Shown: one piece after another, positions 1 through 40,829 of the stretch
Layout: each line of letters begins with the position of its first letter
Numbering within the stretch: the first letter of the stretch is position 1
Source: a virus
Length of the DNA stretch: 53,394 nucleotides
Direction: 5' to 3' (one strand)
IMG/VR virus record: IMGVR_UViG_3300021425_002207
Coordinates: 1 to 53,394 of that record
The notes under the pieces: generated by a model
What the model saw: the letters and a program-made list of their open reading frames with translations, nothing else
What the model was told of the DNA's origin: nothing
The model's database searches: none
Position numbers and translations under genes: made by a program

Positions 1-3000
1 GAGGTGGAAAGCGTCGTAGTCGTAGTGTTCGGCGTGTTAGGAGCACTGCTCGTCGTGCCAAGTCAGCACAGTTGCTTTCACATAACGAAATTGTTGAGGT
101 TTCACCTTTACGCATTGCCGTTCGTGAATCTAGAGACTTCGGTGGTGTTTTAGTACAGCCTATTGCTGGCCGTCAATCCGCTGTTGACATGAAGGCGGCT
201 ATGTTCGCCATGTATACTGCGAAGGTTCCGGTTAATGGCGAGGTCAGCGAAAAACGTGTTGGCGTTTTTGGTAGTTCTAGCCGTGCAGGTCAGGCGGCTC
301 AGGCGGCTGGTACAATTATTCTTCCGGGTGACATTTCAGATATTCGCAGTCCTATCCGTTCGCAGATTTACGAGACTTTGACTCCGGGTGGCGGTCGTGG
401 GTTGCCGAGTGGCCGTCGTTTGATTCGTGGTGCTGGCCGTACTGGTAGGGGCGCACGCAACAAGTTCCGTTGTCCTCCGGGTTTCCAGAAGGGCGGCACT
501 TTTACGAACGCACAGTTCAGTACTTGTGGCGCACAGATTTTGGGTATTCCGGGTAAAGGTGTAGGTTCGCCTTCTTCTGGCGCTCAGCGTGCTTTGGCTG
601 CTTTGGCTAGGGATGCTTCGCTTGTGCGTGAGATTGGCGATCTTCGCAGCAACCGTAATCCTTATGATATTATTCGTGCGGCGCAGATTCCTGTAGCACC
701 TAAGAAGGGTAGCCCAACTCGCCGCCAGATTTCAATTAACACTGTTCTTGCCCGAGCCGACGAGCAAGACTTTTCAGTTCGTGCTGTCCGTAGGGATGGC
801 GTGATCCTTGAACCTGTTGTTTCATTGCAGGCTCTTGGTAAACTTGATGAGTTTGACGACTTGGCTGATGGTACACTGATTGATCGTTATGAGAGCGGTC
901 AAATTGGTAAGGATATTGTTCCTGCTTTCTCTACCGGTCTTCGTGATATCTATGTTGATATTCCTGAGTCTGGTGCTGTACGTGTGAGTAGAGTTGGTGG
1001 AGAGTTGTCTCCTACCGAGGTTGAAAGTTTGCGTCGTGTGTTCCCGACTTCTTTGCGGCGTGCCGCAGACTTGCCTGATCCTAGTGCTGCTATTCGTAAT
1101 TATGCGGATGGGACAGACGGTAGGTTGACTGTTGAGTTTGGTGAACTTAAAAACAACAAGTTTGAAGTTAGTGCTAGTAAGAACGAGTTGATTCGTGTTC
1201 AGACTGCTGGTGGCAAGTCGCTTACAGTTCCTCGCTGGGTGTACGAGACATTCTTGTCTCGGTCTGCTCCTCGTCGTGCAAAAGATGCGCCTGTTTACGA
1301 AATCATGTCAGAAGAGAAGGTGTCAAACCCTTTTTTCTTGTCCACCAAGACGATTACCTCTCTCACACATCGAACCGCTAACTATCACGAGTTGATTGAG
1401 GTTCGGGCTGCTATCTTTGCGGCTAACCGTGAAAACATTCAGGTAAAGCGGATTGGTGGTGGCGCACGTCGTGCTGGTGGCCGTTCTAGGGCTTTGTTTG
1501 ATCCGGGCTTGAACCGTTACAGGTGTCCTCCGGGAACTCGTTATGGTGGTCGCATTGCTGACCAGTTTGGACGTAATTGTGGCTATTCTCTTCCACGTAC
1601 TGTCGTGAATAGTCTTGTCGATTTGGGTATCCGTATTGAGGACGCTATGGAGAAGCGTCGTCAGCGTAGGCTGGAGCGGGGTTCTCGGCGTGAGCGTCTT
1701 GGCGCAGCAATCAAGGAAAAGTATGATAATGCTTTGAATGGTCTTGCTGATGTCATGGATAAACTTGCTAATGTTTTGGATAAGACTGAGGATAAGCGTC
1801 CGGGGAAGATTGGTCCTAGTATTGCTGAGCGTCGTAATGCTGCTCAGTTAACTGATGAAGATCGTGATTTGCTTAGTGGTGAGCCGTTGGCAGATGCGTT
1901 GGATAATTTGAAGAATGTGTTGGACGATCAGGATTTCCAGAATCCTGATATTCCTGAGATTCAGAAGGCATATAAGGCTGTTGAGAAGGCTGCTGGTTTG
2001 GAGGCTGGTCGTCTTACTGATAATCCTGCGAAGAATGAGAAAGATCGTAGTATTGGCCGTCGTATCCTTGATGCTATTGCTAACATCATGGATAGGTTGG
2101 CTGATTTTGTTGATCCTGATACTTCTCGCCGTGATCGGCGTGAGCGTCGTCCTGCTGCTTCTGCTGCACCCGCTCCTAAGACTCCTCAGGCTCCGAAGAA
2201 GTTCGATTCTCCACGTAAGCCCGAAAAACTGGACAACTTTGGTCAACTTTCTATTGGTGGTCGCCGCAAGAAGGTAGACGTTCCTGAACTTCGTGATTTG
2301 TCAGATGAGGATAAGAGTAAGTTAGATAATGCTGTTCAGTCAGAGTTTAACTTTTTGTCAGGATTCTGGGCAAGTCGTTTAAACAAGGGTATTAACGATT
2401 TCTCTGAAAAAGATATTCGTAAGTACTTAAAAGCAAACAAGAACAGCACAGATGCTCGTGTTGAGCGTCGTCGGTATAACGATTGGCTTGAACTTAACGA
2501 GTTGAAGCGTGCCCAAGATGACGGGTCGTTTGATGGAGATTACGAAGATTTCGTGGGTAGGCTTGCGCCGAACCGTCGTGATTCTATTGTAAGTTCGATC
2601 AAGCCTCCTGAAGACCCTCCGGGTGATGCTGGCGATGCGGCTGGTGCGGTAGATATAGAGACTCCTGCCGATGAGTTACCTTCTCCCGGCGTAGATTACT
2701 CTTCGCAGGGCTTCGCAAAAGCACGTGGCAGCGTCGATACGCTTGAATTTTTGAATGGTCTATCTGACGAGGACTTAGAAAACTATAAGCAGGCTCACAT
2801 TGCTGAAAATTCTGCCCAGCAGGCTGCGGGTGGTCCACCTAGCAAGGTAATTGAGGACCGGATTGCACAGATTGGTCTGGTTCAGGCTATTCGTGATAAG
2901 CAGCGAGGTGTTTCTAAGCAACCGCCGACCAACAAAGACTTGTCTACAGAGGGCTTCTTTGAAGAGCGTAATAAGTTTGGCAAGCCGGTTGACAATTTTA

Positions 3001-6000
3001 TAAAGTCTTTGACCGACGAAGAACTTGACGGATACATCGAATCTTTTGATAAGAAGAAGAACGATCCTTTTGAGCCTCCTCCATCTGCCTCAATGAAGAA
3101 AGCACGAGAGTTGCTTGGCGTGGAGCGTGAAGAACGTGACGCTAAGAATAAACAAGATGCTCTAGTTGATAACGCAGATTTAGAAATGGGTGACCCTGAT
3201 CCTGATGGGTTCCATCCTGCGAGCAAGGTTGAGGACGCTGTAAACAATCCTGACCTCAATGATACCACGAATGTACCAGACAGTATCATTGACGAGAGCG
3301 CTAGCAATGTCACGGGCGTAAAGTCTACGGCAAGTAATTACAAGTATGTAGAAAACATTTATGATGATGAGCCTTTTAATGCTGAGCAGATTGGAAAAGC
3401 CAATCCAGCAACTTTGTTTGATGATCCCGATTTCGATATCAACGATCCTAAGACTCGTGTTGGCGTCCTCGTAGTAGACCGGGAGACTGGTCGTGTGATG
3501 GTGCGTCACACTAAGGACAACTTTGACGGTTATGGTTGGACATTCAGCAAGGGCGGAATCGACAATGGTGAGACTGTACATGATGCGGCTATGCGGGAGT
3601 TGTTTGAAGAAACAGGTTTGTCGGCAGACGATGTTAATGTTGTTGGTGCCTTAAATGGGTCGTATGGTGGCGGGGGCGGTAGTAAGAACTATTTCTTCAT
3701 TGCTCAGGTCAGCAATGGTGCAGATAAGTTTAATATTGATGGAAACGACGAGACAGATGATCTTGTTTTTGCTGATCCTGCTGATGTGGCTAGTTTCATT
3801 GACAAAGACACCACAAATACTGTTGGTAAAGCACGTGATTTGAAGATTGCCCAAGATTTAGATTCGTGGATTACTAGTGGCGGTGTTACTGGGGAAAAGA
3901 ATGAGAAGTTCCAGACTTCTGTTATCAACAACTTAAATGAGAGTTCTAGCCCGACAAAATCTTCTGGGGGTATTCCTGAAGATACACTGACTCCAACGAA
4001 GCATAAAGCATCTCTTGTACCCAATAACGATATGGTGCAAAAGTCAAAGCAGACAGATTTACCTCTTAAAAAAGTTGCTGCAACTATTGATGAGAATGAT
4101 GGGGCTAAGCGAGAGGCTGCTGCACAACTGTTGGCAGACTCTGGCACTGTCGATGCTTTGAATGATCCAGAGTTCTTGTTAACCGACTTTGATGTCAACG
4201 ATGAAATGTTTGACGCTATTAGCGACGGGTCAGTTAGCCGTTACGTTGAGATTCCTACGGGTGATCAGGGCATCAATGGTCAGGTCGGGTTCCCGACCAA
4301 GATGTTCCGTGATGAAGAAACCGGAAATATTTACGTTCTGAAGAAGCCCGCCCGCAACGATAAAGAGCACTTGTCTGAATCTTCAGCAGCGATTGTGGCA
4401 CAAGACTTGGGACTTCCTGTTCCTGATGTGACATTTGCTGGCAACGACTACCTTGTTAGCGGTGATGCTGAAGGGCCTTATGGGCAGAAGGTTACCAAGT
4501 TTGGTGATACAACCAACCGCCCTATGATTATTCAGCATGTCGGTAACGTGTTAGACATGAACGAAGGTGGCGGGTCAACAATTAACCATAAGCAGATGGG
4601 TGCCATGCTTGCTCAGCAATATCTAATTGGTGAGCCAGATAACCACGGTTCTAACAGGGTCAACATGGTGGATGCTAACGGCAAGAAATCAGTCTTTGCC
4701 TTTGATGCTGGTAAAGCATTCATTCCCCACGACGAAAAGTTTGGTGAAGAATTCTTTGGTTCTAGGTTTGGTGAAAGCATCAAGAGTCTTCCGGCTGAAG
4801 ATCGTAAGGCCATTATTGCTGAAACACAGAAAGCACTGAGCGGATTCGATGTGGAGGCTTCTCAGAAACGAATCCGGGATCAGGTTGATGCTGGCAATTT
4901 AACTGAGGAAGAGGCTGGCCGCTTGTTAGAGATTTCTGACTTTGTTGCACAACGCCACGGGGCGTGGAAGACTGCACTGGGTAAGGATTTTGCTGATGAT
5001 GCTTTGACTGACGATGAGTTAGAGTCAGAACTGTCGCCGTCCATTAAGATGTTCACTCCGCCTGAATCATCTTCTAAGTTTGGTAAGATTGCTGACCCTA
5101 ATGGAAATCCAACCGATCCTGATACTTATGCTGAGGGTGTTGGCCCACTGGCTTCTAAACTTTCCATTTCAGCGAATGATGTGACCAACATTCAACAGTC
5201 CTCGTCGCAGGGTGTAGTTAAGGCAATGAATAGTCCTTCGCAGATAAACAGCAAGGATGATGGCGGATATAGCCCAATGCCGGTGGTGAATGAGTTTTCG
5301 TTGGACGGTCCTGCAATTCAGGGTCAGAAAGTTTCCTTTACTGCTGGACATTTTGTAAATGAGGGCGGCGTGAACGATGGAGAGACGAAGTTTGTTAAGA
5401 ATGCCGAGTTCTCTTTAAATCTTTCCCCTGAAGCACATCAGAATTTGATTGATCAGATTGACTCTAGTGATATCCCATCTTATAAAATTTCTGGCGCACA
5501 GGAAACAGTGTTTCATTTTTCTGGAACGAACTCACCTACTTTGAAGGTTGATTCGTCTATAGACGGTACGACTATTTCAAAGAGTAAGTTTGATGGTGCT
5601 GGAAGAACTACCCTTTCCTCTTCTTATGGTCCGGGGAGTGGTAATGAATTTATTCCTAGTGACGATGGCCTTGTACGGGTTGCGGATTTTGGTGATGTTA
5701 AGGTGATGGTTTACCCTGAAGTAGCCACTGGACAAGGTGGGGAGCATGGGCTAAACCGTCGTGTCCGTGTCTTTGTTGGCGGGGATACTAGGGAATCTCT
5801 AAAGGATGGCACTGCAACGCAGGCTAGCATTGAAAGCATTTTTGCTAAAATTGGCGTTGACGCTTCGCCTCCTACAGAAACACAAATCAGGGATCAGTTG
5901 GCTCGTGACTTCTTGCGACATGCCACAAAGATGGATGCAGGTAAGAATCCTTCACCGACTTATCATAGTGGATATGGTACAGACTACGATAGTCCTGAAA

Positions 6001-6959
6001 CAATTAGCACGGCGTTAAGTAATTTATCTGCTTTCGGTATTAAGCCTGAAGATATTTCTTATTCGCTGGCAGGAGGTAAGGCTCATGTTACTTTAACTCC
6101 TGAAGCATCAAAGCGGGCGGCAAAAGAATTAGGAAAGTTACGGGCAGAAAAATTAGGACAATCTGATAAGCACACTGGCAATGTTCCTAAAGTACCGTGG
6201 TTCTACTCTAACCAGAACATCAGTATTGGAGGCTCTGACGAGCGGCAAAAGTTGATTAGCCGACTGTTCATTGATGGATCACATACCGGTTCTCTGGATA
6301 GGGCTGAAAAGTCGCAAAGTGCTGCGGCGTTTACTAATAGACGAGGCATGTCTGGAGATACCGACGCTGCTACCGGTTCAGGTGAAGGTATGTATCTACG
6401 TATGGCAGACCACGCTACTAGCGGCGCTGATGGTTCTTCTGGTGTAATTTTATTTAGCGATGATATGGTCGGTAAATTAGATGCCCAGTGGGCCGACTTT
6501 GACGTGTGGGGTAACCCTCATAGTTCGACACCTAAGAAGTGGAGTTCTACTGGTGGTCCATGGCAACATTATGTTAATGGCAATCAAACAGCCTCTTCAT
6601 CAAATGAGGTGTACATTCCTCATCAGGTTCCGTGGGCTGAATCTATGGTTAACTTAGGTGATGTGTCGTCAACAAGTCTTGAATCGCTTGAGAGCGACAT
6701 CCGTGACAGCAATATTGATTTGAGCGTTTTGAATAGCAGAAACATTATTGTGAAGAGCGGGTCGGGATATCGTTTCGTGGTTTGGGAGCAAGGTCCGAAC
6801 GGTCCTGTCATGAAGTTAGGCCCAGTTGTTAAGCGGGCACAACTTCCGAGTGCAAAGATCACTGGAAAACTAGACACATTCAAGACCGCAGAAATTAACG
6901 TATCAGAAAATACTCCTGCTACACCTAGCACTAGTACCTTTGATCCGGGTATAATTTAA
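1..6959 (+). CDS. Giant minor head (MuF-like?) polyprotein with Nudix, PI3/4K-like kinase and probable ADP-ribosyltransferase domains; 5' partial
   Basis: The frame is open from position 3, upstream of the first usable start (TTG at 72), and that upstream part reads as an Arg/Lys-rich stretch, so the gene begins outside the window. At least 2,295 residues are visible. Numbering from the TTG: two copies of a C-P-P-G...C-G motif with identical C-x17-C spacing (near residues 133 and 483); a charged, low-complexity middle; a full Nudix box at about 1161-1183 (GGIDNGETVHDAAMRELFEE then TGL); a kinase-like domain at about 1390-1620 with a VLKK lysine, a DNHGSN catalytic loop (about 1523) and a FDAGKAF metal motif (about 1544), as in PI3/4-kinase/HipA-fold kinases; and a C-terminal region (about 2050-2190) ending in SNEVYIPHQVP, which resembles the last motif of ADP-ribosyltransferases. 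The position just before the capsid genes suggests a virion protein, possibly delivered into the host. The Nudix call is firm, the kinase good, the transferase tentative. Confidence 0.85.
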   Translation, partial: GGKRRSRSVRRVRSTARRAKSAQLLSHNEIVEVSPLRIAVRESRDFGGVLVQPIAGRQSAVDMKAAMFAMYTAKVPVNGEVSEKRVGVFGSSSRAGQAAQAAGTIILPGDISDIRSPIRSQIYETLTPGGGRGLPSGRRLIRGAGRTGRGARNKFRCPPGFQKGGTFTNAQFSTCGAQILGIPGKGVGSPSSGAQRALAALARDASLVREIGDLRSNRNPYDIIRAAQIPVAPKKGSPTRRQISINTVLARADEQDFSVRAVRRDGVILEPVVSLQALGKLDEFDDLADGTLIDRYESGQIGKDIVPAFSTGLRDIYVDIPESGAVRVSRVGGELSPTEVESLRRVFPTSLRRAADLPDPSAAIRNYADGTDGRLTVEFGELKNNKFEVSASKNELIRVQTAGGKSLTVPRWVYETFLSRSAPRRAKDAPVYEIMSEEKVSNPFFLSTKTITSLTHRTANYHELIEVRAAIFAANRENIQVKRIGGGARRAGGRSRALFDPGLNRYRCPPGTRYGGRIADQFGRNCGYSLPRTVVNSLVDLGIRIEDAMEKRRQRRLERGSRRERLGAAIKEKYDNALNGLADVMDKLANVLDKTEDKRPGKIGPSIAERRNAAQLTDEDRDLLSGEPLADALDNLKNVLDDQDFQNPDIPEIQKAYKAVEKAAGLEAGRLTDNPAKNEKDRSIGRRILDAIANIMDRLADFVDPDTSRRDRRERRPAASAAPAPKTPQAPKKFDSPRKPEKLDNFGQLSIGGRRKKVDVPELRDLSDEDKSKLDNAVQSEFNFLSGFWASRLNKGINDFSEKDIRKYLKANKNSTDARVERRRYNDWLELNELKRAQDDGSFDGDYEDFVGRLAPNRRDSIVSSIKPPEDPPGDAGDAAGAVDIETPADELPSPGVDYSSQGFAKARGSVDTLEFLNGLSDEDLENYKQAHIAENSAQQAAGGPPSKVIEDRIAQIGLVQAIRDKQRGVSKQPPTNKDLSTEGFFEERNKFGKPVDNFIKSLTDEELDGYIESFDKKKNDPFEPPPSASMKKARELLGVEREERDAKNKQDALVDNADLEMGDPDPDGFHPASKVEDAVNNPDLNDTTNVPDSIIDESASNVTGVKSTASNYKYVENIYDDEPFNAEQIGKANPATLFDDPDFDINDPKTRVGVLVVDRETGRVMVRHTKDNFDGYGWTFSKGGIDNGETVHDAAMRELFEETGLSADDVNVVGALNGSYGGGGGSKNYFFIAQVSNGADKFNIDGNDETDDLVFADPADVASFIDKDTTNTVGKARDLKIAQDLDSWITSGGVTGEKNEKFQTSVINNLNESSSPTKSSGGIPEDTLTPTKHKASLVPNNDMVQKSKQTDLPLKKVAATIDENDGAKREAAAQLLADSGTVDALNDPEFLLTDFDVNDEMFDAISDGSVSRYVEIPTGDQGINGQVGFPTKMFRDEETGNIYVLKKPARNDKEHLSESSAAIVAQDLGLPVPDVTFAGNDYLVSGDAEGPYGQKVTKFGDTTNRPMIIQHVGNVLDMNEGGGSTINHKQMGAMLAQQYLIGEPDNHGSNRVNMVDANGKKSVFAFDAGKAFIPHDEKFGEEFFGSRFGESIKSLPAEDRKAIIAETQKALSGFDVEASQKRIRDQVDAGNLTEEEAGRLLEISDFVAQRHGAWKTALGKDFADDALTDDELESELSPSIKMFTPPESSSKFGKIADPNGNPTDPDTYAEGVGPLASKLSISANDVTNIQQSSSQGVVKAMNSPSQINSKDDGGYSPMPVVNEFSLDGPAIQGQKVSFTAGHFVNEGGVNDGETKFVKNAEFSLNLSPEAHQNLIDQIDSSDIPSYKISGAQETVFHFSGTNSPTLKVDSSIDGTTISKSKFDGAGRTTLSSSYGPGSGNEFIPSDDGLVRVADFGDVKVMVYPEVATGQGGEHGLNRRVRVFVGGDTRESLKDGTATQASIESIFAKIGVDASPPTETQIRDQLARDFLRHATKMDAGKNPSPTYHSGYGTDYDSPETISTALSNLSAFGIKPEDISYSLAGGKAHVTLTPEASKRAAKELGKLRAEKLGQSDKHTGNVPKVPWFYSNQNISIGGSDERQKLISRLFIDGSHTGSLDRAEKSQSAAAFTNRRGMSGDTDAATGSGEGMYLRMADHATSGADGSSGVILFSDDMVGKLDAQWADFDVWGNPHSSTPKKWSSTGGPWQHYVNGNQTASSSNEVYIPHQVPWAESMVNLGDVSSTSLESLESDIRDSNIDLSVLNSRNIIVKSGSGYRFVVWEQGPNGPVMKLGPVVKRAQLPSAKITGKLDTFKTAEINVSENTPATPSTSTFDPGII

Positions 6960-9887: not shown

Positions 9888-11183
9888 ATGAGTTTTGATG
9901 AAGGTCGGCTCAACGAACTGAAGAGCGCTCTAGACTCAAAGATGTCAGAGCAGCAGCAGATCGCTGATTCGATGCAGTTTGAGGGTAGCACCCTCATCGC
10001 TGACGACGAGAAGAAGTCAGCATTCCAGAACAACATGACCCAGATTCGTGAAATCAAGGGTCTTATTGAGGACATGACCGCTCTTCGTGACGTGTCAGCA
10101 TGGTCATCAGAGGCTGAGTACAAGTCAGTCGCTGCTGAGGTTGCTGCGGGCGTTGAGGCTGAGGTTGCCGCTCACCGTCGTGGTTCGGTTGGCGAGCAGT
10201 TCCTTGCTTCAGAAGAGTTCAAGTCACTTCAGGGCGGTAAGGCTGGCGTTAACATGTCATCTCCTTTCCAAGCCAAGTCACTTCACACCAAGGACATCTA
10301 CTCAGGTCTGCCCACCGGCACCCCTGACGCCTTTGGTGCTGTTGAGCGTGATGGCATTGTCCCAATTGCACAGCGTCGTAGCCGTGTGCGTGACCTTTTC
10401 CCGGCACGTACCACCAACGCTGCTGTCATTGAGTACTTCCGTCAGAGCGGTTTCACGAACGCTGCGTCCGTTGTTCCTGAGTACTCCTCAAGCAACTTCG
10501 GTGCGAAGCCACAGTCGTCAATGACTTTCGTTGGCGAGCAGGCTCCTGTTCGTACCATCGCTCACTGGGAAGCCGCTCACCGGAACGTTCTCGCTGACGA
10601 GCCGCAGTTGCGTTCGATCATCGACAACGAACTCCTTTACGGTCTTCGTCTGACCGAGGACAACCAGATTCTCTCAGGTGCTGGCACCGGTGAGGACCTT
10701 ACTGGTATCCTTAACACTTCAGGCATTCAGACCTATGCATGGTCAGATGGTGCAACCGATCCGGTTGCTGACACTAAGGCTGACGCTCTTCGTCGTGCGG
10801 CTACGCTTGCGTACCTCGCCTACTACGAGCCGACCGGCATGATTGTCCACCCATCAGACTGGGAAGACATCGAACTCACCAAGAACGAGCAGGGCACGTA
10901 CCTTCTTGCCATGTCAGTTGCTGGTGGTGCCGAGTCACGTGTCTGGCGTATTCCTGTCATCGACACTCCTGCCATTGATGAGGGCACTGCTCTCGTTGGT
11001 GCTTTCGGTACCGGTGCTCAGTTGTACGACCGTGAGGCCGCTTCAATCCGTATTTCGGAACAGCACTCAGACTTCTTCGTCCGCAACGCCATCGTGGTGC
11101 TTGCTGAAGAGCGTCTGGCTCTCGCTGTGAAGCGTCCAGAGGCATTCGTCAAGGTTGACTTCGACGCTGCTCCTAGTGCCTGA
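9888..11183 (+). CDS. Major capsid protein, HK97 fold
   Basis: A 431-residue protein with the typical layout of HK97-type capsid proteins: a coiled N-terminal region of about 110 residues rich in Glu, Gln and Ala that may act as a built-in scaffold, a junction around 115-140, then the core with motifs such as IIDNELLYGLRLTEDNQIL and GAGTGEDLTGIL, and a late VWRIPVIDTPAI segment (P-domain type). An AAGGAG box lies 6 nt before ATG. Codon use differs visibly from its neighbours (TTC, TAC, AAG and CGT favoured; few TTA or ATA codons), as expected for a very highly expressed gene. A strong terminator follows. I see no separate protease gene nearby, so processing may depend on a protein encoded upstream of the window. 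Confidence 0.95.
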   Translation: MSFDEGRLNELKSALDSKMSEQQQIADSMQFEGSTLIADDEKKSAFQNNMTQIREIKGLIEDMTALRDVSAWSSEAEYKSVAAEVAAGVEAEVAAHRRGSVGEQFLASEEFKSLQGGKAGVNMSSPFQAKSLHTKDIYSGLPTGTPDAFGAVERDGIVPIAQRRSRVRDLFPARTTNAAVIEYFRQSGFTNAASVVPEYSSSNFGAKPQSSMTFVGEQAPVRTIAHWEAAHRNVLADEPQLRSIIDNELLYGLRLTEDNQILSGAGTGEDLTGILNTSGIQTYAWSDGATDPVADTKADALRRAATLAYLAYYEPTGMIVHPSDWEDIELTKNEQGTYLLAMSVAGGAESRVWRIPVIDTPAIDEGTALVGAFGTGAQLYDREAASIRISEQHSDFFVRNAIVVLAEERLALAVKRPEAFVKVDFDAAPSA

Positions 11184-11273: not shown

Positions 11274-12005
11274 ATGCCTATTTTTGATAACGACTCCAAC
11301 TTTCCAGTGCCTACGTGGACGAAGGATGACGTTGTTGTTTTAGAAGCGATTGATGATTACTATGCTGTAGGTATCGTCAGGTTCTTGGGGTTCTTAATTA
11401 GCAATGAAGGAATGGTTGCTGACTCCACGTTGGATTTGATTTTAGTTGTTCAGTCTATAGTCAATAATGCGGACGAAAAGTATTCGTTTGATGATGCGGA
11501 GAGAATTGTCACACTTTCCAGTGAGTTCTGTTTAGTGGATTGCGTGTACGAGAATCAGGTTCTTGCGATGATAGAGTTGCAGGATAACGCTGTTTTGTTT
11601 TTGGCTATTCAAGGTGAGGACCACTACGCTTTGGAAGCCGCCGTGTGCTTGGCCGAGGACGAGAAGTCTTTACTCCACGATGGTTTAGTTAGGCCGTCCC
11701 TTTCTTTGTTTGGGGACTGGGAAAACATTGGTGCTGTAGTGTTGGAATCTATGTTGACTCGCCGTCTACTATCTGATAGTATAGGCTCTCTTATGGATCA
11801 CACTTCTAACTCCGGTCTATGGATCACGTCTGAAGTTGAGTTCGTAGATGTTATACGCAAGTTGTGTGCTGTTGGTTTGTTGAGTGTTGACATTGTTGAC
11901 ACTGGTAGAGCAATGGTTGCTGTTCAGGAGAAGGCTGCTGGATTGTTTCTTTTGTTTTCCGGCAGGACTGAACTGGCCAAAGAGTTGGCTGACTTGTCGA
12001 TTTGA
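11274..12005 (+). CDS. Hypothetical protein
   Basis: A 243-residue acidic protein without a recognised domain. It is rich in hydrophobic helices with interspersed acidic residues (DLILVVQSIVNNAD, IGAVVLESMLTRRLLSDSIG, LAKELADL) and looks like an all-helical soluble protein. It lacks a ribosome binding site; its ATG lies 5 nt after an extended -10 box, so it appears to be translated from a leaderless mRNA. It stands alone between the capsid terminator and nrdJ. Codon use (TTG, GTT, GAT) differs from that of the capsid gene just upstream. Confidence 0.75.
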   Translation: MPIFDNDSNFPVPTWTKDDVVVLEAIDDYYAVGIVRFLGFLISNEGMVADSTLDLILVVQSIVNNADEKYSFDDAERIVTLSSEFCLVDCVYENQVLAMIELQDNAVLFLAIQGEDHYALEAAVCLAEDEKSLLHDGLVRPSLSLFGDWENIGAVVLESMLTRRLLSDSIGSLMDHTSNSGLWITSEVEFVDVIRKLCAVGLLSVDIVDTGRAMVAVQEKAAGLFLLFSGRTELAKELADLSI

Positions 12006-12030: not shown

Positions 12031-12139
12031 TTCTTCACGAAATTGTGCAAGTCTCATGATGACTTGACAGTTGCAGACTCGCCATAGGCGTTAGAATACT
12101 AAAACCATTTAAATCACACCCACAGAAAGAGAGACAAAC

Positions 12140-14095
12140 GTGGACCCTTTTTTCATTTCCGACGACTTCGCTGACCAGTATGCTGACAAGATGCCCCCTT
12201 GGGGTTTCAACGGCCTTGGGTACGTTACCTATAAGCGTACCTACGCTCGTCCTATTTTTGAGGAGGGCACTAACGTTGTCGCCCGAACTGAAGAGTGGCA
12301 CGAGACTATTCAACGTGTGGTGAATGGTGCTCAGAGTATCGGTGCGCAGTTGACGGAAGATGAGGCTCAGCGTCTCTATGACTATCTGTTCAACCTTAAG
12401 GGTTCAGTTGCTGGCCGGATGTTGTGGCAGTTGGGTACTGAGAACAATCAGCGCCTCGGCGGTGACAGCCTTGTTAACTGCTGGTTCGTTGACGTTCAGA
12501 AGCCAACTGACTTTTCTTGGGCTGTTGAGCGTTTGATGCTTGGCGGCGGCGTAGGTTTCTCTTGTGATAAGCCTGAGCGACTTGGTGTTGTCCGCTCTGC
12601 GTGGGTTTCACATCAGGATGCGAACGACTCTGACTTTATCGTTCCCGATACTCGTGAGGGTTGGGGTAATCTTATTCGCAAGGTGTTTGAGTGCTACCTT
12701 GGTGGCGACGACGACCCGCAGTATATGAGTTACGCCACGCATCTTATTCGTCCTGCCGGTGTCCCAATCAAGACCTTCGGTGGTACTGCTTCAGGTCCTG
12801 ACATTCTTATCTCTGGTGTGGAGAAGATTTGTGATGTTCTTGATGGTGCGGTTGGCCGCACGATGACTTCAGTTGAAGTTCTTGATTGCATGAACATTAT
12901 TGGCTCTATCGTTGTTGCCGGTAACGTTCGCCGCAGCGCTGAAATTGCTGTTGGCCGTATTGACGACGAGGATTACTTGATGGCTAAGCGTTGGGACTTG
13001 GGTGACATTCCTATTGAGCGTGCCATGTCGAACAACACTGTTTTTGTCTCTCCTGAGCAGATGAAGGACATGCCTGACCTGATCTGGGAAGGATACAAGG
13101 GCAATGGTGAGCCTTATGGTTTCTTTAACCTTGAGGCTTCTCGCCAGTTTGGGCGTATGGGTGAAGAGCGACCTGATCCGTCTATTGTCGGCGTTAACCC
13201 ATGTGCCGAAATCCCGCTGGCTAACCGTGAGTCTTGCAACTTGTCTGAGATTTTCTTGCCTATGATTGACTCTCCTGAAGAGTTGAAGGATGTTGCACGC
13301 CTACTATACAAGGTGCAGAAGGCGACTGCGGCTCTGTCGTACCTTGACCCTGCATCGGACAAGATCACTTCACAGAACATGCGTCTTGGTCTTGGTGTTA
13401 CTGGTGTTACTCAGGCTATGGACAAGATTGACTGGCTTGATGAGACCTATGTTTCGTTGCGTGCTTTGGATGCCGAGTGGTCAGCAGAGCGTGGATGGCC
13501 TGAGTCTGTTCGCCTTACCACGATTAAGCCTTCGGGTACTTTGAGCCTTCTTCCGGGTGTTACTCCCGGTGTTCACCCCGGCTTCAGTCAGTACTTTGTA
13601 AAGCGTATGCGTATGGCTTCGGGTGACGTTCTTGTCAACTACTGCCGGTCAAAGGGCTTCTATGTTGAGCCTCTTCGCAACTTTGATGGTTCAGAAGATC
13701 ACCGTACAGTTGTTGTTGAGTTCCCTTGTGCGTTCCCTGATGGTACGATTGAGGCTAAGGATATGACTGCTATTCAGCAGATGGACCTTGTTCGTCGTCT
13801 TCAGAAAGTGTGGGCGGATAACGCTATTTCTGTGACGGTCTACTACAAGAGCGAAGAGTTGGACGGTATTCGTGAGTACCTTGCTGAGCACTGGCATGAG
13901 ATGAAGTCTGTATCATTCCTCTTGCACAGCGAGCACGGATTCGATCAGGCTCCTATGGGTGAGTTGACAAAGGATGAGTACGAGCACGTGCTCAGCACTA
14001 CATCACCACTCGGTGAGAAGTTGACTGGCTCAACGATGATGTCAGACGATGAGTTTGACGCCGAATGCGCCACAGGTGCGTGTCCAATCCGATAA
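12140..14095 (+). CDS. nrdJ: Adenosylcobalamin-dependent class II ribonucleoside-triphosphate reductase
   Basis: A 651-residue monomeric class II ribonucleotide reductase, which makes deoxyribonucleotides without oxygen, using coenzyme B12. All key residues of the Lactobacillus leichmannii type are visible with the right spacing: C114 (LVNCWF), N353-P-C355-A-E357 (thiyl radical cysteine and proton-shuttling glutamate), C366 (ESCNLSEIF), and the C-terminal pair C643/C648 (ECATGACPIR) that is re-reduced by thioredoxin-type partners. GGGVGFSCDK is also typical. GTG start with a GAAAGAGAG purine tract upstream. The phage must rely on cobalamin from the host or medium. The location, between capsid and connector genes rather than in a replication module, is unusual. 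Codon use is of the highly expressed type, like the capsid gene. Confidence 0.96.
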   Translation: MDPFFISDDFADQYADKMPPWGFNGLGYVTYKRTYARPIFEEGTNVVARTEEWHETIQRVVNGAQSIGAQLTEDEAQRLYDYLFNLKGSVAGRMLWQLGTENNQRLGGDSLVNCWFVDVQKPTDFSWAVERLMLGGGVGFSCDKPERLGVVRSAWVSHQDANDSDFIVPDTREGWGNLIRKVFECYLGGDDDPQYMSYATHLIRPAGVPIKTFGGTASGPDILISGVEKICDVLDGAVGRTMTSVEVLDCMNIIGSIVVAGNVRRSAEIAVGRIDDEDYLMAKRWDLGDIPIERAMSNNTVFVSPEQMKDMPDLIWEGYKGNGEPYGFFNLEASRQFGRMGEERPDPSIVGVNPCAEIPLANRESCNLSEIFLPMIDSPEELKDVARLLYKVQKATAALSYLDPASDKITSQNMRLGLGVTGVTQAMDKIDWLDETYVSLRALDAEWSAERGWPESVRLTTIKPSGTLSLLPGVTPGVHPGFSQYFVKRMRMASGDVLVNYCRSKGFYVEPLRNFDGSEDHRTVVVEFPCAFPDGTIEAKDMTAIQQMDLVRRLQKVWADNAISVTVYYKSEELDGIREYLAEHWHEMKSVSFLLHSEHGFDQAPMGELTKDEYEHVLSTTSPLGEKLTGSTMMSDDEFDAECATGACPIR

Positions 14096-14110
14096 TACTG
14101 AAAGTGCTAC

Positions 14111-14145
14111 TTGCTTATTTATTTCGACGCAGGTAGTATATCTGT
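14111..14145 (+). promoter_or_regulatory. Leaderless promoter of the peroxiredoxin gene
   Basis: TTGCTT (14111-14116), 17-nt spacer, TAGTAT (14134-14139), then exactly 6 nt to ATG at 14146. No ribosome binding site is present. Confidence 0.7.
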
Positions 14146-14658
14146 ATGATTGGAGTAACACAGCAATTTCCCCCGTTCGGCATGGTTGGTGTCGATAGTA
14201 ACAACGAATTTGTCGATATCACGCTTGATGACTTCGACGGCATGTGGAAGGTATTTTATTTCTACCCGAAAGATTTTACCTTTATTTGTCCTACAGAGAT
14301 TCAACAAATGGATCGTCTTGTAGATGATGATGTTGCAGTTGTTGGGTTCAGTGGAGACAACGAATATTGCAAGTTGAACTGGAAACAGTCCAACGATTTG
14401 ATTGGCGCTATTTCACACACTCTTGGTGCCGACACTGGCCTGTACTTAGTTCGGACATTAGGCATTGAGGACGACATCGAAGGCGTCGCTTTGCGTGCCA
14501 CGTACATTGTTGACGACTTTAACGTTATCCGGTCTGTCACTGTGAACGACTTAGACACTGGTCGGAATGTGGATGAGACTATCAGAACGTTGAATGCTTT
14601 ACGGGCAGGTGGGTTGACTGGTTGCTCGTGGAATCCGGGTGACTCATTTGTTGGATAG
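14146..14658 (+). CDS. 2-Cys peroxiredoxin, AhpC/Prx1 type
   Basis: A 170-residue thioredoxin-fold peroxidase. The peroxidatic cysteine is C48 in FYFYPKDFTFICPTE, the hallmark of the AhpC/Prx1 subfamily; C160 near the C-terminus (GCSWNPGD) is in the place of the resolving cysteine, although the usual V-C-P-x-x-W is changed. It reduces H2O2 and organic peroxides and needs a thiol donor, as does the neighbouring reductase. The protein is slightly shorter than host AhpC (about 187). It is read from a leaderless promoter 50 nt after nrdJ. Peroxiredoxins are rare in phage genomes; it may protect B12 chemistry or cellular thiols late in infection (inference). Confidence 0.92.
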   Translation: MIGVTQQFPPFGMVGVDSNNEFVDITLDDFDGMWKVFYFYPKDFTFICPTEIQQMDRLVDDDVAVVGFSGDNEYCKLNWKQSNDLIGAISHTLGADTGLYLVRTLGIEDDIEGVALRATYIVDDFNVIRSVTVNDLDTGRNVDETIRTLNALRAGGLTGCSWNPGDSFVG

Positions 14659-14666
14659 GACGATAT

Positions 14667-14841
14667 TATAATTTCTAAAGTTGCAATCTGATGAAAGTTT
14701 GGGGTGTAAATTAATACTTGTACCGGCAAGTAGGCTAACCCCGAAGGAGGAGATTGTGGATATCGGTTAAAGTGCCGGTAGCCGATAGGCAATCAAATTA
14801 TCTAGGCGGGGTCTGGTCGCTTGAACCGGACCCCGCTTTTT
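14667..14841 (+). ncRNA. Candidate structured RNA ending in an intrinsic terminator
   Basis: A 198-nt gap without a normal gene. After TATAAT (14667-14672, no good -35) the strand can form TTTGGGGT/ACCCCGAA (14698-14705 with 14738-14745), ATCGG/CCGAT (14762-14766 with 14782-14786) and an exact 8-base long-range match, TACCGGCA (14721-14728) with TGCCGGTA (14773-14780), which would cross the other helices as a pseudoknot or be an alternative fold. A strong GAAGGAGG box precedes a GTG with only four codons (14756-14770). The transcript would end at the terminator at 14806-14841. It could be a small RNA or a leader/attenuator. No known class is recognised. Confidence 0.45.
14806..14841 (+). terminator. 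Strong intrinsic terminator
   Basis: GCGGGGTCTGGT (14806-14817), 7-nt loop, ACCGGACCCCGC (14825-14836), TTTTT: a 12-bp stem with one G-U pair. The right arm and T tract form the spacer of the next promoter, so end and restart of transcription are only a few bases apart. Confidence 0.92.
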
Positions 14842-14856
14842 GTTTAGGATAATAGC
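14821..14856 (+). promoter_or_regulatory. Leaderless promoter embedded in the terminator
   Basis: TTGAAC (14821-14826), 18-nt spacer, TAGGAT (14845-14850), 6 nt, ATG at 14857. No ribosome binding site. The -35 lies in the loop and right arm of the preceding terminator. Confidence 0.65.
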
Positions 14857-15210
14857 ATGTCTAGTCTCGGGGAACTAAAGCAAAGTAAAGTCTTTATTGA
14901 TTTGTCGTATCTTGCCGACTTGATTGAGACCCGTGGTATTTCCACTACGACTCCATTGAACGATGATGGGGAAGTGTCACTTTCTTTTGCCCTTGCATCA
15001 CTTTGTGGTTATAAAGGTTATCCTGAAGTAGACGACTTTTTTTATTTTGTGGATAATGTTCCCGCTTTGTATCGCCCGCAGTTTATTCGCTGTTGGGAGG
15101 CGATTGAGTTAGAGGTTGAACAAGATATTGTTTCGTGGTCAGAAAAAGTAGGTACTGCTGAGACTGTTCGCAGGTTAAGGTCACTTTCAAAAGAAATTGA
15201 GTTATCTTAA
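14857..15210 (+). CDS. Hypothetical protein
   Basis: A 117-residue acidic, probably helical protein of unknown function (SLGELKQSKVFIDLSYLADL at the start, RRLRSLSKEIELS at the end). No domain, membrane segment or metal motif is seen. ATG lies 6 nt after a -10 box, without a ribosome binding site, so it fits the leaderless class. The next gene again has its own promoter, which means these small genes between terminator and DUF1599 gene are separately switched. Confidence 0.72.
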   Translation: MSSLGELKQSKVFIDLSYLADLIETRGISTTTPLNDDGEVSLSFALASLCGYKGYPEVDDFFYFVDNVPALYRPQFIRCWEAIELEVEQDIVSWSEKVGTAETVRRLRSLSKEIELS

Positions 15211-35329: not shown

Positions 35330-35569
35330 ATGCTTACATCAGAATATCTCTACAGTCAGACTCCAGACAGGCTGTTTGTTCATCGTGACTCTGAAACGTG
35401 GTATGCGTTTTACGACAAGGCGTTGTCTGTGTTGACTAATGCTGAAGGAGAACTGCGTTCGTTTTCGTATGATACTAAATCTGAGTATCGTGACGTTCGT
35501 AGGCACATTGTAGAAGAGTATAATTTAATAGATACTAAGGTTTACAATTATAATGAAGATTATAGGTAA
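35330..35569 (+). CDS. Hypothetical protein
   Basis: A 79-residue protein rich in Tyr, Asp and Arg (SQTPDRLFVHRDSETWYAFY, EYRDVRRHIVEEYN). Function unknown; no recognised domain. It has no ribosome binding site but a -10-like TATAGT 6 nt before ATG. Its last 17 nt overlap the start of the IMPDH/GMPR-family gene, so it is probably co-transcribed with it. Confidence 0.65.
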   Translation: MLTSEYLYSQTPDRLFVHRDSETWYAFYDKALSVLTNAEGELRSFSYDTKSEYRDVRRHIVEEYNLIDTKVYNYNEDYR

Positions 35570-36578
35570 GGGTTACACCTTTGATGATGTTCTGCTGGTT
35601 CCTAAGTTTTCTGAAGTTAGGAGCCGTGCAGAAGTTGATCTTTCGCTAACTTTAGGTAAAGTTGAGATGCGCATACCTATTGTTGCTGCGAATATGGATA
35701 CAGTTTGCGGGCCTGAGATGGCAAGCGCTCTTGATTCTTTAGGCGGTTTCGGTGTCGTTCACAGGAACATGCCGGTTGTTGGCGATATAACTACTGGCAG
35801 GTTTGGATGTGTTGCAGGCAGGACTATCCGTTCAGCCGTTGCATTCGGCGTGAATGATGATTTAGACGCTGTTATCCAACAGGCAAACTCGTGGAGGACG
35901 AAGATTCTAGTGCTTGATATTGCCCACGGTCATAGTGCTCATGCCCTCAAGGCATTGCAGTATGTGATGTCTGAAATTGACCACGAGGCTACTTTCATTG
36001 GCGGCAATGTCGCTACTGCACAGGCGGTAGAAGATTTCGCCAAGATCGGTACAGATGTAGTTAAGATTGGCATTGGTCCCGGAAGTGTGTGTTCTACTCG
36101 TGTGGTTGCCGGTGTGGGCGTTCCTCAGTTGACTGCTATTGCGGAATGTTCTGCGGCGGCTGATGCTTTAGGTATCCAGACGATTGCTGACGGTGGGATT
36201 AAGACTCCGGGCGATGCTGCTAAGGCTCTTGCCGCTGGCGCTGATGCTGTTATGATTGGGGGCATGTTTGCTGGCACTAAGGAGTCTCCCGGAAAGACAG
36301 TTACGCTTGATGATGGATCAAAAGTTAAGGTGCATAGAGGGATGGCTTCTTCGGAAGCGGGTTCCGCCTACCCTGAGGGGGTTGAAGGCGTTGTTCCGGT
36401 GACAGGTCCGGTAAGCGATGTTGTTGAGTCGATTTTGCGTGGCATTCGGTCAGCGTGTAGTTATGTGGGGGCTAGTTCTTTGAAGGATTTTGCGAACAAG
36501 TCAGAATTTATCGAAATCTCGCCCTCCGGGTTGCGAGAGTCTGCCCCACATGATATAATGAACGCTAACTTATGGTAA
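35553..36578 (+). CDS. IMP dehydrogenase / GMP reductase family enzyme, without CBS domains
   Basis: A 341-residue TIM-barrel purine enzyme. The opening [18 protein letters not shown], the barrel motif [20 protein letters not shown] and the catalytic loop [20 protein letters not shown] (nucleophile C180) are diagnostic; [20 protein letters not shown] is the phosphate-binding part. There is no CBS pair, and the length (341) is that of GMP reductase, although VVAGVGVPQ and the PEGVEGVVP end resemble IMPDH. So it either makes XMP from IMP or IMP from GMP, shifting the guanine pool. It overlaps the small gene upstream by 17 nt and DNA polymerase downstream by 7 nt. Purine enzymes of this family are uncommon in phages. 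Confidence 0.88.
36531..36559 (+). promoter_or_regulatory. Promoter of the DNA polymerase gene
   Basis: TTGCGA (36531-36536), 17-nt spacer, perfect TATAAT (36554-36559). It lies in the last codons of the upstream gene. ATG 36572 follows 12 nt after the -10, leaving a leader of only about 5 nt. Confidence 0.7.
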
Positions 36579-38509
36579 ACGAAGATTCAATCACACTTTT
36601 TGACGACTGGCTACATCAGCAACAAGCAGACGGCGAGGGAAGTTTAGGCAAGGTTACCCTAGTACGTTCTGATGAGCAGTTTGCTGATTTCCGTGACTGG
36701 TTGTTTAGTAAATCACGTCCTATTGCTTACGACATTGAGGCCACAGGTCTTGATACGTATTCTCCTGAGTGGGAGATTAAGAGTATTCAGTGGGGCGATA
36801 TTAGCGAAGCGTTTGTGTTCATTTGGCGTGAGCCTTGGTTTCAGAAGTCTATTGACTTGGTTATGAAAGAAACTAAGCACCGTCTATTAGCACACAACGC
36901 CACATACGATGCGCTCGGCTTGGACCGGCACGGGCACGTAGATGCTCTTGCTCTTCTGGACAGAACTTTTGATACAAAGATTCTTGCCCATCTTGCTGAT
37001 CCCCGAAGCCGTGCCGAGGGTGGTGTAGGTCACGGCCTCAAGAACCTTGCATTTCACCACGTTGATAAATCTGCACCTGACTCTGATAGTGCGCTCAAAG
37101 ATTTGTTTAAGCAGAATAAATGGTCTGTTCAGCAGGGTTGGAAAAACATCCCTGCGGCCCATCCTACGCTGGTGCACTACGCTGGAATGGACGTTATTCT
37201 GACTGCTCGTCTTTTTCCTAAGTTACGTGATGAGATTAAACGTCAGACTATGGATCATCTGGTTAAGTACGAACACACTATTCTGAAACTCGTTGCGGCT
37301 ATGGAACGTCGTGGTATGCGGATTGATGTGAACTATGCTGAGCAACTTATTGAAAGCATGACTGCTGAGGAAAAAAAGAATATTGGTATTGTTAACTCTT
37401 TCGGTGTTTCTAATCATAACGCTACTAAAGATGTTGCTGAAGGATTACAGAAACTTGGTGTGACACTTATCGAAACGACGGCTTCTGGTGCCTTGAAGGT
37501 TGATAAGACAATTTTGTCTGCTATTGCTGCTGACGAGAATGCAGGAAATGCTGGTATGCTCGCTAGAGCGGTGATGGCGGCTAAGAACAATGCTAAGTGG
37601 CGAGACAGTTATGTTGTTGCGTCTCTGGAGTCTATGGACTCTAATGGTCGTGTTCATCCCAAGATTAACAGTTTGCAGGCCCGCACTGGCCGAATGTCTG
37701 TAAACAACCCTCCTTTGCAACAGTTACCTTCAGGTGGCGATGCTATACGTAGAATGTTTTTGGCGGAAGAAGGATGCCGAATGGCATCTATCGACTTCTC
37801 TGGTGTTGAGTTGCGTGTCCTTGCGGCTCTTTCTCAAGACCCCGTTATGTTGAAGGTTTTCCGTGAAGGTGCTGACCTGCACCAAACCACTGCCGACAAC
37901 ACAGGAGTTACCCGAAAAGTAGCCAAGACCGTAAACTTTGGTAAGGTGTACGGTGCTGGGCCTAAAACTTTGGCTAGACAATCTGGTTTGTCGATTGACG
38001 AAGCACAACAGGTGTGCGATCTTTTCGACTCTACATACAAAGGTGTGACCGAGTATTCTCACAAGTTAGCGTTTCCTGTGAAGAAGGGACATAGAAACTA
38101 TGTGATTACGCATACAGGACGCAAGTTACCTGTGGACTCAGAGCGACCGTATGCGGCTCTAAACTATTGCATTCAGTCCACGGCACGTGATATACTTGGC
38201 AAGGCCATGATAGATGTGGCGGAACAAGGACTGTGGGACTATGCGGTTCTACCAATTCATGACGAGATTCTATTCAGTTTCCCTGAGGGACAGGCTGAGG
38301 AGTTGTGCCGACATGCAGGGGTCGCTATGGAGACAGTCCTGAAAGAAGTACATATTTCAACTGAGCCTGACTTGGGTGGCGGCTCTTGGGGAACCCTATA
38401 TACAGACGGCGAGCATGACGTGATCGACCTTACGGACGATGATCGCCAAAAGTACGGGGATGAAAAACTCAAGAGACTGCTTTTCAGCGAGCAGGACTTC
38501 AGATTTTGA
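36572..38509 (+). CDS. DNA polymerase, family A, with 3'-5' proofreading domain
   Basis: A 645-residue replicative polymerase. Proofreading motifs: AYDIEATGLD (D54, E56), LLAHNATYDALGL and YAGMDV. Polymerase motifs: A, SIDFSGVELRVLA (D408); B, RKVAKTVNFGKVYG (K452, F456); C, LPIHDEILF (H563, D564). There is no 5'-3' exonuclease domain. F456 matches Phe762 of E. coli Pol I, the common state; marine phages often have Tyr or Leu there. Motif A has G in place of the usual Q (D-F-S-G-V-E versus D-Y-S-Q-I-E), which is worth noting. No helicase or primase is in this window, so those genes must lie elsewhere. Confidence 0.95.
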   Translation: MVNEDSITLFDDWLHQQQADGEGSLGKVTLVRSDEQFADFRDWLFSKSRPIAYDIEATGLDTYSPEWEIKSIQWGDISEAFVFIWREPWFQKSIDLVMKETKHRLLAHNATYDALGLDRHGHVDALALLDRTFDTKILAHLADPRSRAEGGVGHGLKNLAFHHVDKSAPDSDSALKDLFKQNKWSVQQGWKNIPAAHPTLVHYAGMDVILTARLFPKLRDEIKRQTMDHLVKYEHTILKLVAAMERRGMRIDVNYAEQLIESMTAEEKKNIGIVNSFGVSNHNATKDVAEGLQKLGVTLIETTASGALKVDKTILSAIAADENAGNAGMLARAVMAAKNNAKWRDSYVVASLESMDSNGRVHPKINSLQARTGRMSVNNPPLQQLPSGGDAIRRMFLAEEGCRMASIDFSGVELRVLAALSQDPVMLKVFREGADLHQTTADNTGVTRKVAKTVNFGKVYGAGPKTLARQSGLSIDEAQQVCDLFDSTYKGVTEYSHKLAFPVKKGHRNYVITHTGRKLPVDSERPYAALNYCIQSTARDILGKAMIDVAEQGLWDYAVLPIHDEILFSFPEGQAEELCRHAGVAMETVLKEVHISTEPDLGGGSWGTLYTDGEHDVIDLTDDDRQKYGDEKLKRLLFSEQDFRF

Positions 38510-40157: not shown

Positions 40158-40187
40158 TTGACTTTGTTTAGGGACCTATGTTATACT
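40158..40187 (+). promoter_or_regulatory. Promoter of the tRNA and following gene
   Basis: TTGACT (40158-40163), 18-nt spacer, TATACT (40182-40187). Transcription would begin about 28 nt before the tRNA. Confidence 0.72.
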
Positions 40188-40221
40188 CTAGCAAACGGCA
40201 AACACATTACCCGCAACTCTC

Positions 40222-40295
40222 GCCCCCGTATTCCAATTGGCAGAGAAAGTCGGCTTAAAACCGATACAGTGTGGGTTCAAGTCCCACCGGGGGTA
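40222..40295 (+). tRNA. tRNA with anticodon UAA (Leu codon UUA), short variable loop
   Basis: A 74-nt cloverleaf: acceptor GCCCCCG/CGGGGGT (40222-40228 with 40288-40294, one G-U), discriminator A at 40295, no encoded CCA; anticodon stem GTCGG/CCGAT with loop CTTAAAA, so anticodon UAA at 40256-40258; T stem GTGGG/CCCAC with loop TTCAAGT. The D stem is weak (TTC/GAA, three pairs, T rather than G at position 10). The variable loop is only 5 nt (ACAGT), although bacterial tRNA-Leu should have a long variable arm. So the anticodon says Leu, but the shape is class I. It lies before and is probably co-transcribed with the next gene. Confidence 0.82.
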
Positions 40296-40310
40296 CTAGA
40301 AAGGAGCATT

Positions 40311-40829
40311 ATGAATATTTTTGTAGTAGATGAAAGTCCGTCTGAAGCGGCTGAGGCACTGTGCGATAAGCATGTACCTAAGATGATTGTTGAGACCACG
40401 CAGATGCTTGTTAGCGCCCTTAGGCGGCACGGAGCGAGCGATGAGCAAGTTCCACTTACTAAGTCTGGGACGCCCCACAAGGGTGGCTACAAGAACCATC
40501 CTGCTACGGTTTGGGTAGGTGATAGCCGAAGTAACGCTGAATGGTTGCTTGAGCATGGCTTTGCTTTGTGTGATGAGTTTGAATTTCGTTTCAATAAAGA
40601 GCACGCTTGTCTACAGCAACTAGAGAAAATTAGTCTAGAACTTGATTTAATCCCAGCGGGGGAAATGACCGACGTGGCGTTGTGTGTTGGGGAAGAATTG
40701 CAGAATGGTCGAACTCATGCCCCTATTCAAGAAGCAGTTGACGTGTACAGGAATTTCTATAGAATAGATAAGGCTGATTTCGCTAAATGGGAAAAAGGTT
40801 CAAATGTTCCTGTTTGGTGGGTTCAGTAG
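40311..40829 (+). CDS. Conserved phage protein of unknown function (CDKHVPKMIVETTQML family)
   Basis: A 172-residue protein. The N-terminus MNIFVVDESPSEAAEALCDK followed by HVPKMIVETTQMLVSALRRH is a hallmark of a family I know from cyanophages and other environmental phages; the function is not known to me. Further conserved-looking parts are KNHPATVWVGDSRSNAEWLL and YRNFYRIDKADFAKWEK. GAAAGGAG lies 6 nt before ATG 40311. A longer reading from 40158 is rejected because it would run through the tRNA. The DKH...E pattern could be catalytic or metal-binding (inference). Confidence 0.82.
   Translation: MNIFVVDESPSEAAEALCDKHVPKMIVETTQMLVSALRRHGASDEQVPLTKSGTPHKGGYKNHPATVWVGDSRSNAEWLLEHGFALCDEFEFRFNKEHACLQQLEKISLELDLIPAGEMTDVALCVGEELQNGRTHAPIQEAVDVYRNFYRIDKADFAKWEKGSNVPVWWVQ

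What the first reader, a model, noticed from the sequence alone, without database searches (positions are those of the whole stretch)
12140..14658. B12-dependent ribonucleotide reductase next to a phage peroxiredoxin, inside the head cassette
nrdJ (all catalytic Cys present) is followed by an AhpC-type 2-Cys peroxiredoxin with its own leaderless promoter. Both depend on thiol reductants, and both lie between capsid and connector genes instead of the replication block. Peroxiredoxins are rare in phages. The pair may be an auxiliary metabolic unit that keeps dNTP synthesis going under oxidative stress.
Basis: partly seen in the sequence, partly recalled or inferred. Interest (0 to 1): 0.58.

Follow-up and report, generated by a model that had tools for sequence, protein, structure and literature searches.

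The report
Phage antioxidant enzyme beside nucleotide reductase
A virus that probably infects aquatic actinobacteria carries, right after its gene for making DNA building blocks, an optional extra gene for a peroxide-destroying enzyme that belongs to a large, little-noticed family found in uncultured phages.

Summary
nrdJ (12140-14095) is an intact monomeric B12-dependent RNR. prx (14146-14658) is a 2-Cys-type peroxiredoxin with its own promoter, placed to give a leaderless mRNA; this geometry recurs in 10 of 10 distinct upstream sequences against 44 of 4196 control ATGs. Both lie between capsid and connector genes.

nrdJ is a core gene of a phage family that probably infects Actinomycetota (WhiB in 15 of 22 records). 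prx is an optional insert in the slot after it: 15 of 47 resolvable loci. Two relatives carry prx far from nrdJ. Peroxiredoxins are not rare: a scan found at least 580 viral relatives. The 120 loci examined all keep three cysteines; the second catalytic one lies two residues from the usual resolving position, and they form one clade apart from cellular enzymes, except for one SAR86 gene beside a LysR regulator and a KatG-like peroxidase.

One unrelated phage lineage has nrdA-prx-nrdB, but that gap holds other cargo in relatives. Most likely prx is a self-transcribed, thioredoxin-dependent peroxidase cassette, not an obligate nrdJ partner. A conserved structured RNA lies just downstream.

The parts
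12140..14095 (+). nrdJ, monomeric adenosylcobalamin-dependent (class II) ribonucleotide reductase, 651 aa; cysteines 114, 355, 366, 643, 648 conserved
14111..14139 (+). sigma70-type promoter of prx: TTGCTT (14111-14116), 17-nt spacer, TAGTAT (14134-14139), then 6 nt to the ATG, giving a leaderless mRNA
   Evidence: 10 of 10 distinct upstream sequences, control 44 of 4196 ATGs
14146..14658 (+). prx, 2-Cys-type peroxiredoxin, 170 aa
14287..14289 (+). codon of peroxidatic Cys48, in the PxxxTxxC motif
14368..14370 (+). codon of Cys75, invariant in the phage clade (120 of 120 viral loci)
14623..14625 (+). codon of Cys160, presumed resolving Cys, two residues after the canonical position (which is Thr158)
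14664..14845 (+). conserved non-coding element: -10-like TATTATAAT, pseudoknotted structure, intrinsic terminator at 14804-14838; present with or without prx (context, not part of the pair)
14857..15210 (+). g117, conserved ORF of unknown function that bounds the slot; similar promoter-to-ATG geometry
9888..11183 (+). major capsid protein (context)
11274..12005 (+). g243, unknown ORF conserved upstream of nrdJ (context)

Best explanation
prx is an optional, self-transcribed antioxidant cassette inserted after a core phage nrdJ gene. Shown by sequence: an intact 2-Cys-type peroxiredoxin fold with PxxxTxxC48, Arg117 and a C-terminal Cys160; its own leaderless promoter; purifying selection; presence or absence in a fixed slot. 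Inferred: Cys48 is oxidised by H2O2 or organic peroxide to the sulfenate; Cys160 of the partner subunit condenses with it, taking over from the missing canonical resolving Cys; a thioredoxin, from the host or from the phage itself in relatives, reduces the disulfide. The likely benefit is removing peroxide in the infected, probably actinobacterial, cell, which spares thioredoxin-fed phage processes such as NrdJ and the DNA itself. The link to nrdJ is by position and shared reductant, not an obligate partnership.
For: Fold and catalytic residues. Three invariant cysteines in 120 of 120 viral loci. Leaderless promoter in 10 of 10 distinct upstream sequences. Slot: prx in 15 of 47 resolvable nrdJ loci; nrdJ, g117 and the RNA are kept without prx. 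dN/dS 0.084/2.19 for prx against L005, and dN 0.04-0.07 with dS 1.0-1.8 for nrdJ. Phage thioredoxin in 4 of 12 nrdJ-family records, including G074, which has prx in the slot, and G014, where trx lies about 1.2 kb from prx. Glutaredoxin in 16 of 34 other prx records. The SAR86 gene nested in the phage clade sits beside a LysR regulator and a KatG-like peroxidase. Reported: in M. [quoted passage not shown] A phage NrdJm draws electrons from host thioredoxin (PMC6459318, passages).
Against: No activity, expression or infection data exist. The canonical resolving position is Thr158, so turnover with Cys160 is an inference. No thioredoxin or glutaredoxin gene was found in the 53-kb window, which is a fragment. 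Trx was found in 0 of 34 other prx records. Actinobacterial AhpC can use AhpD instead of thioredoxin. The dN/dS estimate is near saturation, and four of five prx pairs gave no dS.
Confidence: 0.65

Rival explanations
1. Dedicated RNR partner: Prx specifically protects or regulates the phage ribonucleotide reductase, so selection keeps the two genes together, whatever the RNR class.
For: nrdJ-prx adjacency in 15 of 47 resolvable loci; nrdA-prx-nrdB in lineage D, seen in L017 and L020 and in part in L018; 22 of 40 prx records also hold an RNR large subunit, 18 of these 22 within 8.2 kb of prx.
Against: 32 of 47 nrdJ loci lack prx there. In G014 the two genes are about 49 kb apart, and in G056 they are also far apart. 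Of 53 prx cluster representatives only 8 (7 with nrdJ, 1 with nrdA/nrdB) have an adjacent RNR gene, i.e. two arrangements. The nrdA-nrdB gap also holds other cargo. Separate promoter. In other lineages prx sits among general replication and recombination genes.
Confidence: 0.2
2. Positional hitchhiker: RNR genes are targets of homing endonucleases, so cargo accumulates beside them; prx is next to nrdJ because of that, without functional coupling. This concerns the place of the gene only and is compatible with the best explanation: prx may still be a working peroxidase.
For: An Endonuclease VII family ORF lies between nrdJ and prx in L008; remnants of its leader or body in the same gap of L213, L215 and L248 (my reading); about 0.9-kb insertions inside nrdJ in L235, L236, L238, L239; varied cargo between nrdA and nrdB in relatives. 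T4-type phages carry mobE between nrdA and nrdB (PMC2988022, passages).
Against: 14 of 15 prx+ loci have no endonuclease between nrdJ and prx. The prx cassette carries a constrained promoter and coding sequence, which speaks against neutral cargo.
Confidence: 0.4
3. Non-peroxidase role: Prx acts as a chaperone, a redox sensor or a virion component, which would fit its place in the head cassette and the invariant extra Cys75.
For: Place between capsid and connector genes; Cys75 invariant in 120 of 120 viral loci but absent from 13 of 14 cellular relatives aligned; it aligns with a Cys of human Prx3.
Against: In other phages the gene lies in replication regions. Its own promoter differs from a late head operon. 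All catalytic residues are kept.
Confidence: 0.1

Closest known systems
Typical 2-Cys peroxiredoxins, AhpC/Prx1 type (2bmx M. tuberculosis AhpC; 5ucx human Prx3)
   Same: Fold (Foldseek probability 1.00, TM 0.86-0.88), PxxxTxxC motif, catalytic Arg, C-terminal Cys before Trp
   Different: 31-36% identity; resolving position is Thr, with the Cys two residues on; invariant Cys75; 170 aa with a short C terminus; under every curated NCBIfam cut-off
Monomeric class II RNR, RTPR/NrdJm (1l1l; Thermus phage NrdJm, PMC6459318)
   Same: All five functional cysteines; same RNR domains
   Different: 651 against 739 aa, stretches missing; 325 bits, under the 340-bit RTPR cut-off
Phage morons / auxiliary metabolic genes
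   Same: Optional gene with its own promoter between conserved genes
   Different: No terminator of its own seen directly after prx; the next clear terminator belongs to the RNA element downstream
Peroxiredoxin of Synechococcus phage S-SCSM1 (BFVD)
   Same: Nearest viral structure in the library
   Different: 17% identity, TM 0.69, so probably another subfamily

Membership tests
Typical 2-Cys peroxiredoxin (AhpC/Prx1) | Peroxiredoxin fold and AhpC-TSA domain | tested here: met
   Pfam 70.6 bits against 26; AF2 pLDDT 91.7; Foldseek E 6.6e-18
Typical 2-Cys peroxiredoxin (AhpC/Prx1) | PxxxT/SxxC peroxidatic motif and catalytic Arg | tested here: met
   P41, T45, C48 and R117 invariant; that these define the family is recalled
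Typical 2-Cys peroxiredoxin (AhpC/Prx1) | Resolving Cys at the canonical C-terminal position | tested here: not met
   Thr158 at that position; Cys160 lies two residues on; T-x-C-x-W in 120 of 120 viral loci
Typical 2-Cys peroxiredoxin (AhpC/Prx1) | Inter-subunit disulfide, dimer or decamer, peroxidase activity | not testable with these tools
   needs purified protein
AhpC equivalog TIGR03137 / PrxU NF040737 | Score over the curated cut-off | tested here: not met
   96.5 against 272 and 83.3 against 270 bits
Class II monomeric RNR (RTPR, TIGR02505) | Thiyl-radical Cys, active-site Cys pair, C-terminal Cys pair | tested here: met
   C355, C114/C366, C643/C648; roles recalled from RTPR
Class II monomeric RNR (RTPR, TIGR02505) | Score over the curated cut-off | tested here: not met
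   325.2 against 340.05 bits; PHROG 367 covers residues 14-651
nrdJ-prx as one functional unit | Genes kept together across the family | tested here: not met
   15 of 47 resolvable loci; apart in G014 and G056
nrdJ-prx as one functional unit | Joint transcription | tested here: inconclusive
   prx has its own promoter; read-through from nrdJ not testable here
Moron / accessory gene | Own promoter, present or absent between conserved genes | tested here: met

The most novel reading that the evidence does not exclude
Uncultured phages of very different kinds (T4-like, other nrdAB phages, actinophages) share one ancient, phage-specific peroxiredoxin lineage in which the resolving cysteine has moved two residues and a third cysteine is fixed. 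It travels near DNA-precursor and replication genes as a general viral defence of replication against peroxide, and it has passed from phage to bacterium at least once, into a SAR86 locus with a LysR regulator and a KatG-like peroxidase.
Probability: 0.35. Interest if true: 0.62.

Novelty: new variant of a known kind. Interest (0 to 1): 0.46.

Why it matters
If true, peroxide defence is a common phage trait in the samples behind these contigs, almost invisible in cultured phages: 17 of 50,697 named phage records match at all, none at 60% identity or more. The relocated resolving cysteine gives a clean test of how peroxiredoxins tolerate moving it. The precise prx+/prx- slot in otherwise similar genomes is a natural experiment on what an antioxidant gene does for a phage.

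Tried and rejected
Rejected: 'nrdJ-prx operon as an obligate unit' (32 of 47 loci without prx, own promoter). Rejected: the SAR86 MAG locus L122 being a mis-binned phage contig; its neighbours look chromosomal. Considered and left open: recent acquisition of prx. GC is 45.6% against 47.3% for the window and 50.8% for nrdJ, not decisive.

Led nowhere: no Rfam family for the downstream RNA; no glutaredoxin in 12 nrdJ-family records and no thioredoxin in 34 other prx records. Literature: ('viral peroxiredoxin', 'phage-encoded peroxiredoxin', 'phage peroxiredoxin', 'alkyl hydroperoxide reductase phage') found 0 papers; some searches gave listings, of which I opened passages of PMC5931967 (host ahpC only), PMC7238727 (a reference only), PMC13059738 and PMC9402790; none of these passages describes a phage peroxiredoxin family. 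Of PMC12028322, PMC2988022, PMC3653736 and PMC6459318 I saw passages. The other listed papers were not opened.

Limits: contigs in the counts overlap in origin and are not independent. The 40 records were my choice, mostly longer contigs, out of the 120 viral loci. In one search similar sequences were merged (122 viral at 90% to 53, 79 cellular at 85% to 55) and one fused cellular row was dropped. The tree used the quick method without bootstrap. Cellular relatives came from one capped scan whose patterns favour the phage consensus. In one search, 13 of 67 loci were set aside for NrdJ identity under 65% and 7 as unresolved.

Full report
What is there. The window is an IMG/VR virus record of 53,394 bases. 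ORFs at 12140-14095 and 14146-14658 are as described. The first is a monomeric adenosylcobalamin-dependent RNR. Cysteines 114, 355, 366, 643 and 648 align with the functional cysteines of the L. leichmannii enzyme (roles recalled) and show no substitution in the 61 to 66 aligned hits that cover each. The second is a peroxiredoxin with a confident AlphaFold2 model (pLDDT 91.7) that matches typical 2-Cys enzymes. Upstream are the capsid protein and an unknown ORF; downstream are connector and tail genes; DNA polymerase lies at 36572-38509.

Promoter. prx is preceded by TTGCTT-17-TAGTAT with 6 nt to the ATG. In the prx+ relatives the sequence between nrdJ and prx differs, yet the geometry is kept in all 10 distinct upstream sequences, while 44 of 4196 ATGs in the same DNA pass the same test. 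Similar spacing precedes the genes at 14857, 15253, 33794 and 40865, so leaderless promoters look general in this phage. The consensus scan alone did not list the prx site.

The phage family. A search with NrdJ gave 67 loci. Where the slot after nrdJ could be read, 15 of 47 hold prx and 32 do not; 13 further loci have NrdJ under 65% identity and 7 were unresolved. In prx- loci nrdJ is followed, most often after about 200 bases, by g117, so prx is a clean optional insert. Two family records, G014 and G056, have prx elsewhere, near a thioredoxin and a ferredoxin gene in one and near thyX in the other. Of the 34 prx- records searched whole, three more (G045, G047, G061) gave only weak AhpC-TSA hits; the one in G061, like a second weak hit in G056, coincides with a thioredoxin hit. 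WhiB, found only in Corynebacterium glutamicum among 14 control genomes, is present in 15 of 22 family records, not in the window itself. The host is therefore probably an actinobacterium.

The peroxiredoxin family. In the 120 viral loci examined, Cys48 and Cys75 are invariant and the second catalytic cysteine sits in T-G-C-x-W (118) or T-P-C-x-W (2). In most of the 80 cellular hits the motif is C-x-C, with the first Cys at the canonical place. All 53 viral representatives fall in one clade (SH-aLRT 100, quick tree) with a single cellular member, from a SAR86 MAG. That gene lies next to a TonB receptor, a LysR regulator and a KatG-like peroxidase (a reading as OxyR and KatG is mine, from LysR and peroxidase Pfam hits). 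Named phages hold only distant matches (17 of 50,697 records), and a library of viral protein structures holds 2 at E 0.001 or less, the best at 17% identity.

Link to RNR. In L017 and L020 (and in part in L018) prx lies between nrdA and nrdB. None of the 79 other nrdA loci shows a prx hit, and where both subunits are present the gap is empty or holds other ORFs. Of 40 chosen prx records, 22 show an RNR large subunit; in 18 of these 22 it is within 8.2 kb of prx. In other lineages prx stands among uvsX, DnaB-like helicase, RNase H, ligase and polymerase genes. So prx favours the DNA-metabolism neighbourhood, with two arrangements directly beside an RNR gene. Since RNR genes attract homing endonucleases in T4-type phages (PMC2988022, passages), and an Endonuclease VII ORF or its apparent remnants occur in the nrdJ slot, position alone does not prove function.

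Mechanism. Cys48 should form the sulfenate; Cys160 is the only C-terminal cysteine and is invariant, so it most likely resolves it. A 2025 review reports that in M. tuberculosis AhpC the peroxidatic Cys61 is brought to Cys174 or Cys176 (PMC12028322, legend); the phage cysteine aligns with the second of these (my reading of the alignment). Thioredoxin genes in 4 of 12 family records and glutaredoxin genes in 16 of 34 other prx records show that such phages often bring a redoxin. Activity, partner and benefit are inferred.

Novelty. No paper on a phage peroxiredoxin family was found in the searches. I call it a new variant of a known kind: the chemistry is known; the phage-wide clade with a displaced resolving cysteine is, to the extent of these searches, undescribed.

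Noticed in passing
window 14664-14845, and 26 aligned loci (A3): A conserved structured RNA element lies between nrdJ/prx and g117 whether or not prx is present: -10-like TATTATAAT, a pseudoknot or kissing pair ACCGG/CCGGT (four of its five pairs invariant in 25 sequences, the fifth in 23), and an intrinsic terminator. 88.2% of cells pair against 29.9-48.8% in slid controls; fold z-score -4.6; no Rfam family. A pattern scan found 46 IMG/VR stretches, 44 of them apparently in this phage family and 2 (L366, L395) apparently chance.
   Followed up: partly
L122:3683-9882 (SAR86 MAG): A chromosomal peroxiredoxin nested in the phage clade sits beside a TonB receptor, a LysR regulator and a KatG-like peroxidase.
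   Followed up: partly
window 35553-36578 and 40158-40829: The phage also carries an IMPDH/GMP reductase-type gene and a pyrimidine-dimer glycosylase-type gene.
   Followed up: no
window 72-6959: A 2295-aa ORF with an embedded Nudix/MutT domain near residue 1130 and a weak portal match.
   Followed up: no
L235, L236, L238, L239: nrdJ is interrupted by about 0.9 kb, possibly an intron, intein or endonuclease insertion.
   Followed up: no
upstream of nrdJ, window 12064-12107: A conserved TTGAC-rich block, about 22-23 nt, then TAnAAT and TAAAACCA-like sequence precedes nrdJ in most family members shown; the spacing does not fit sigma70 (my reading).
   Followed up: no
L274, L340: The nrdA-nrdB gap in T4-type relatives holds an oxygenase-like ORF (my reading), and elsewhere a zinc-ribbon-like ORF: a variable cargo slot.
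   Followed up: no
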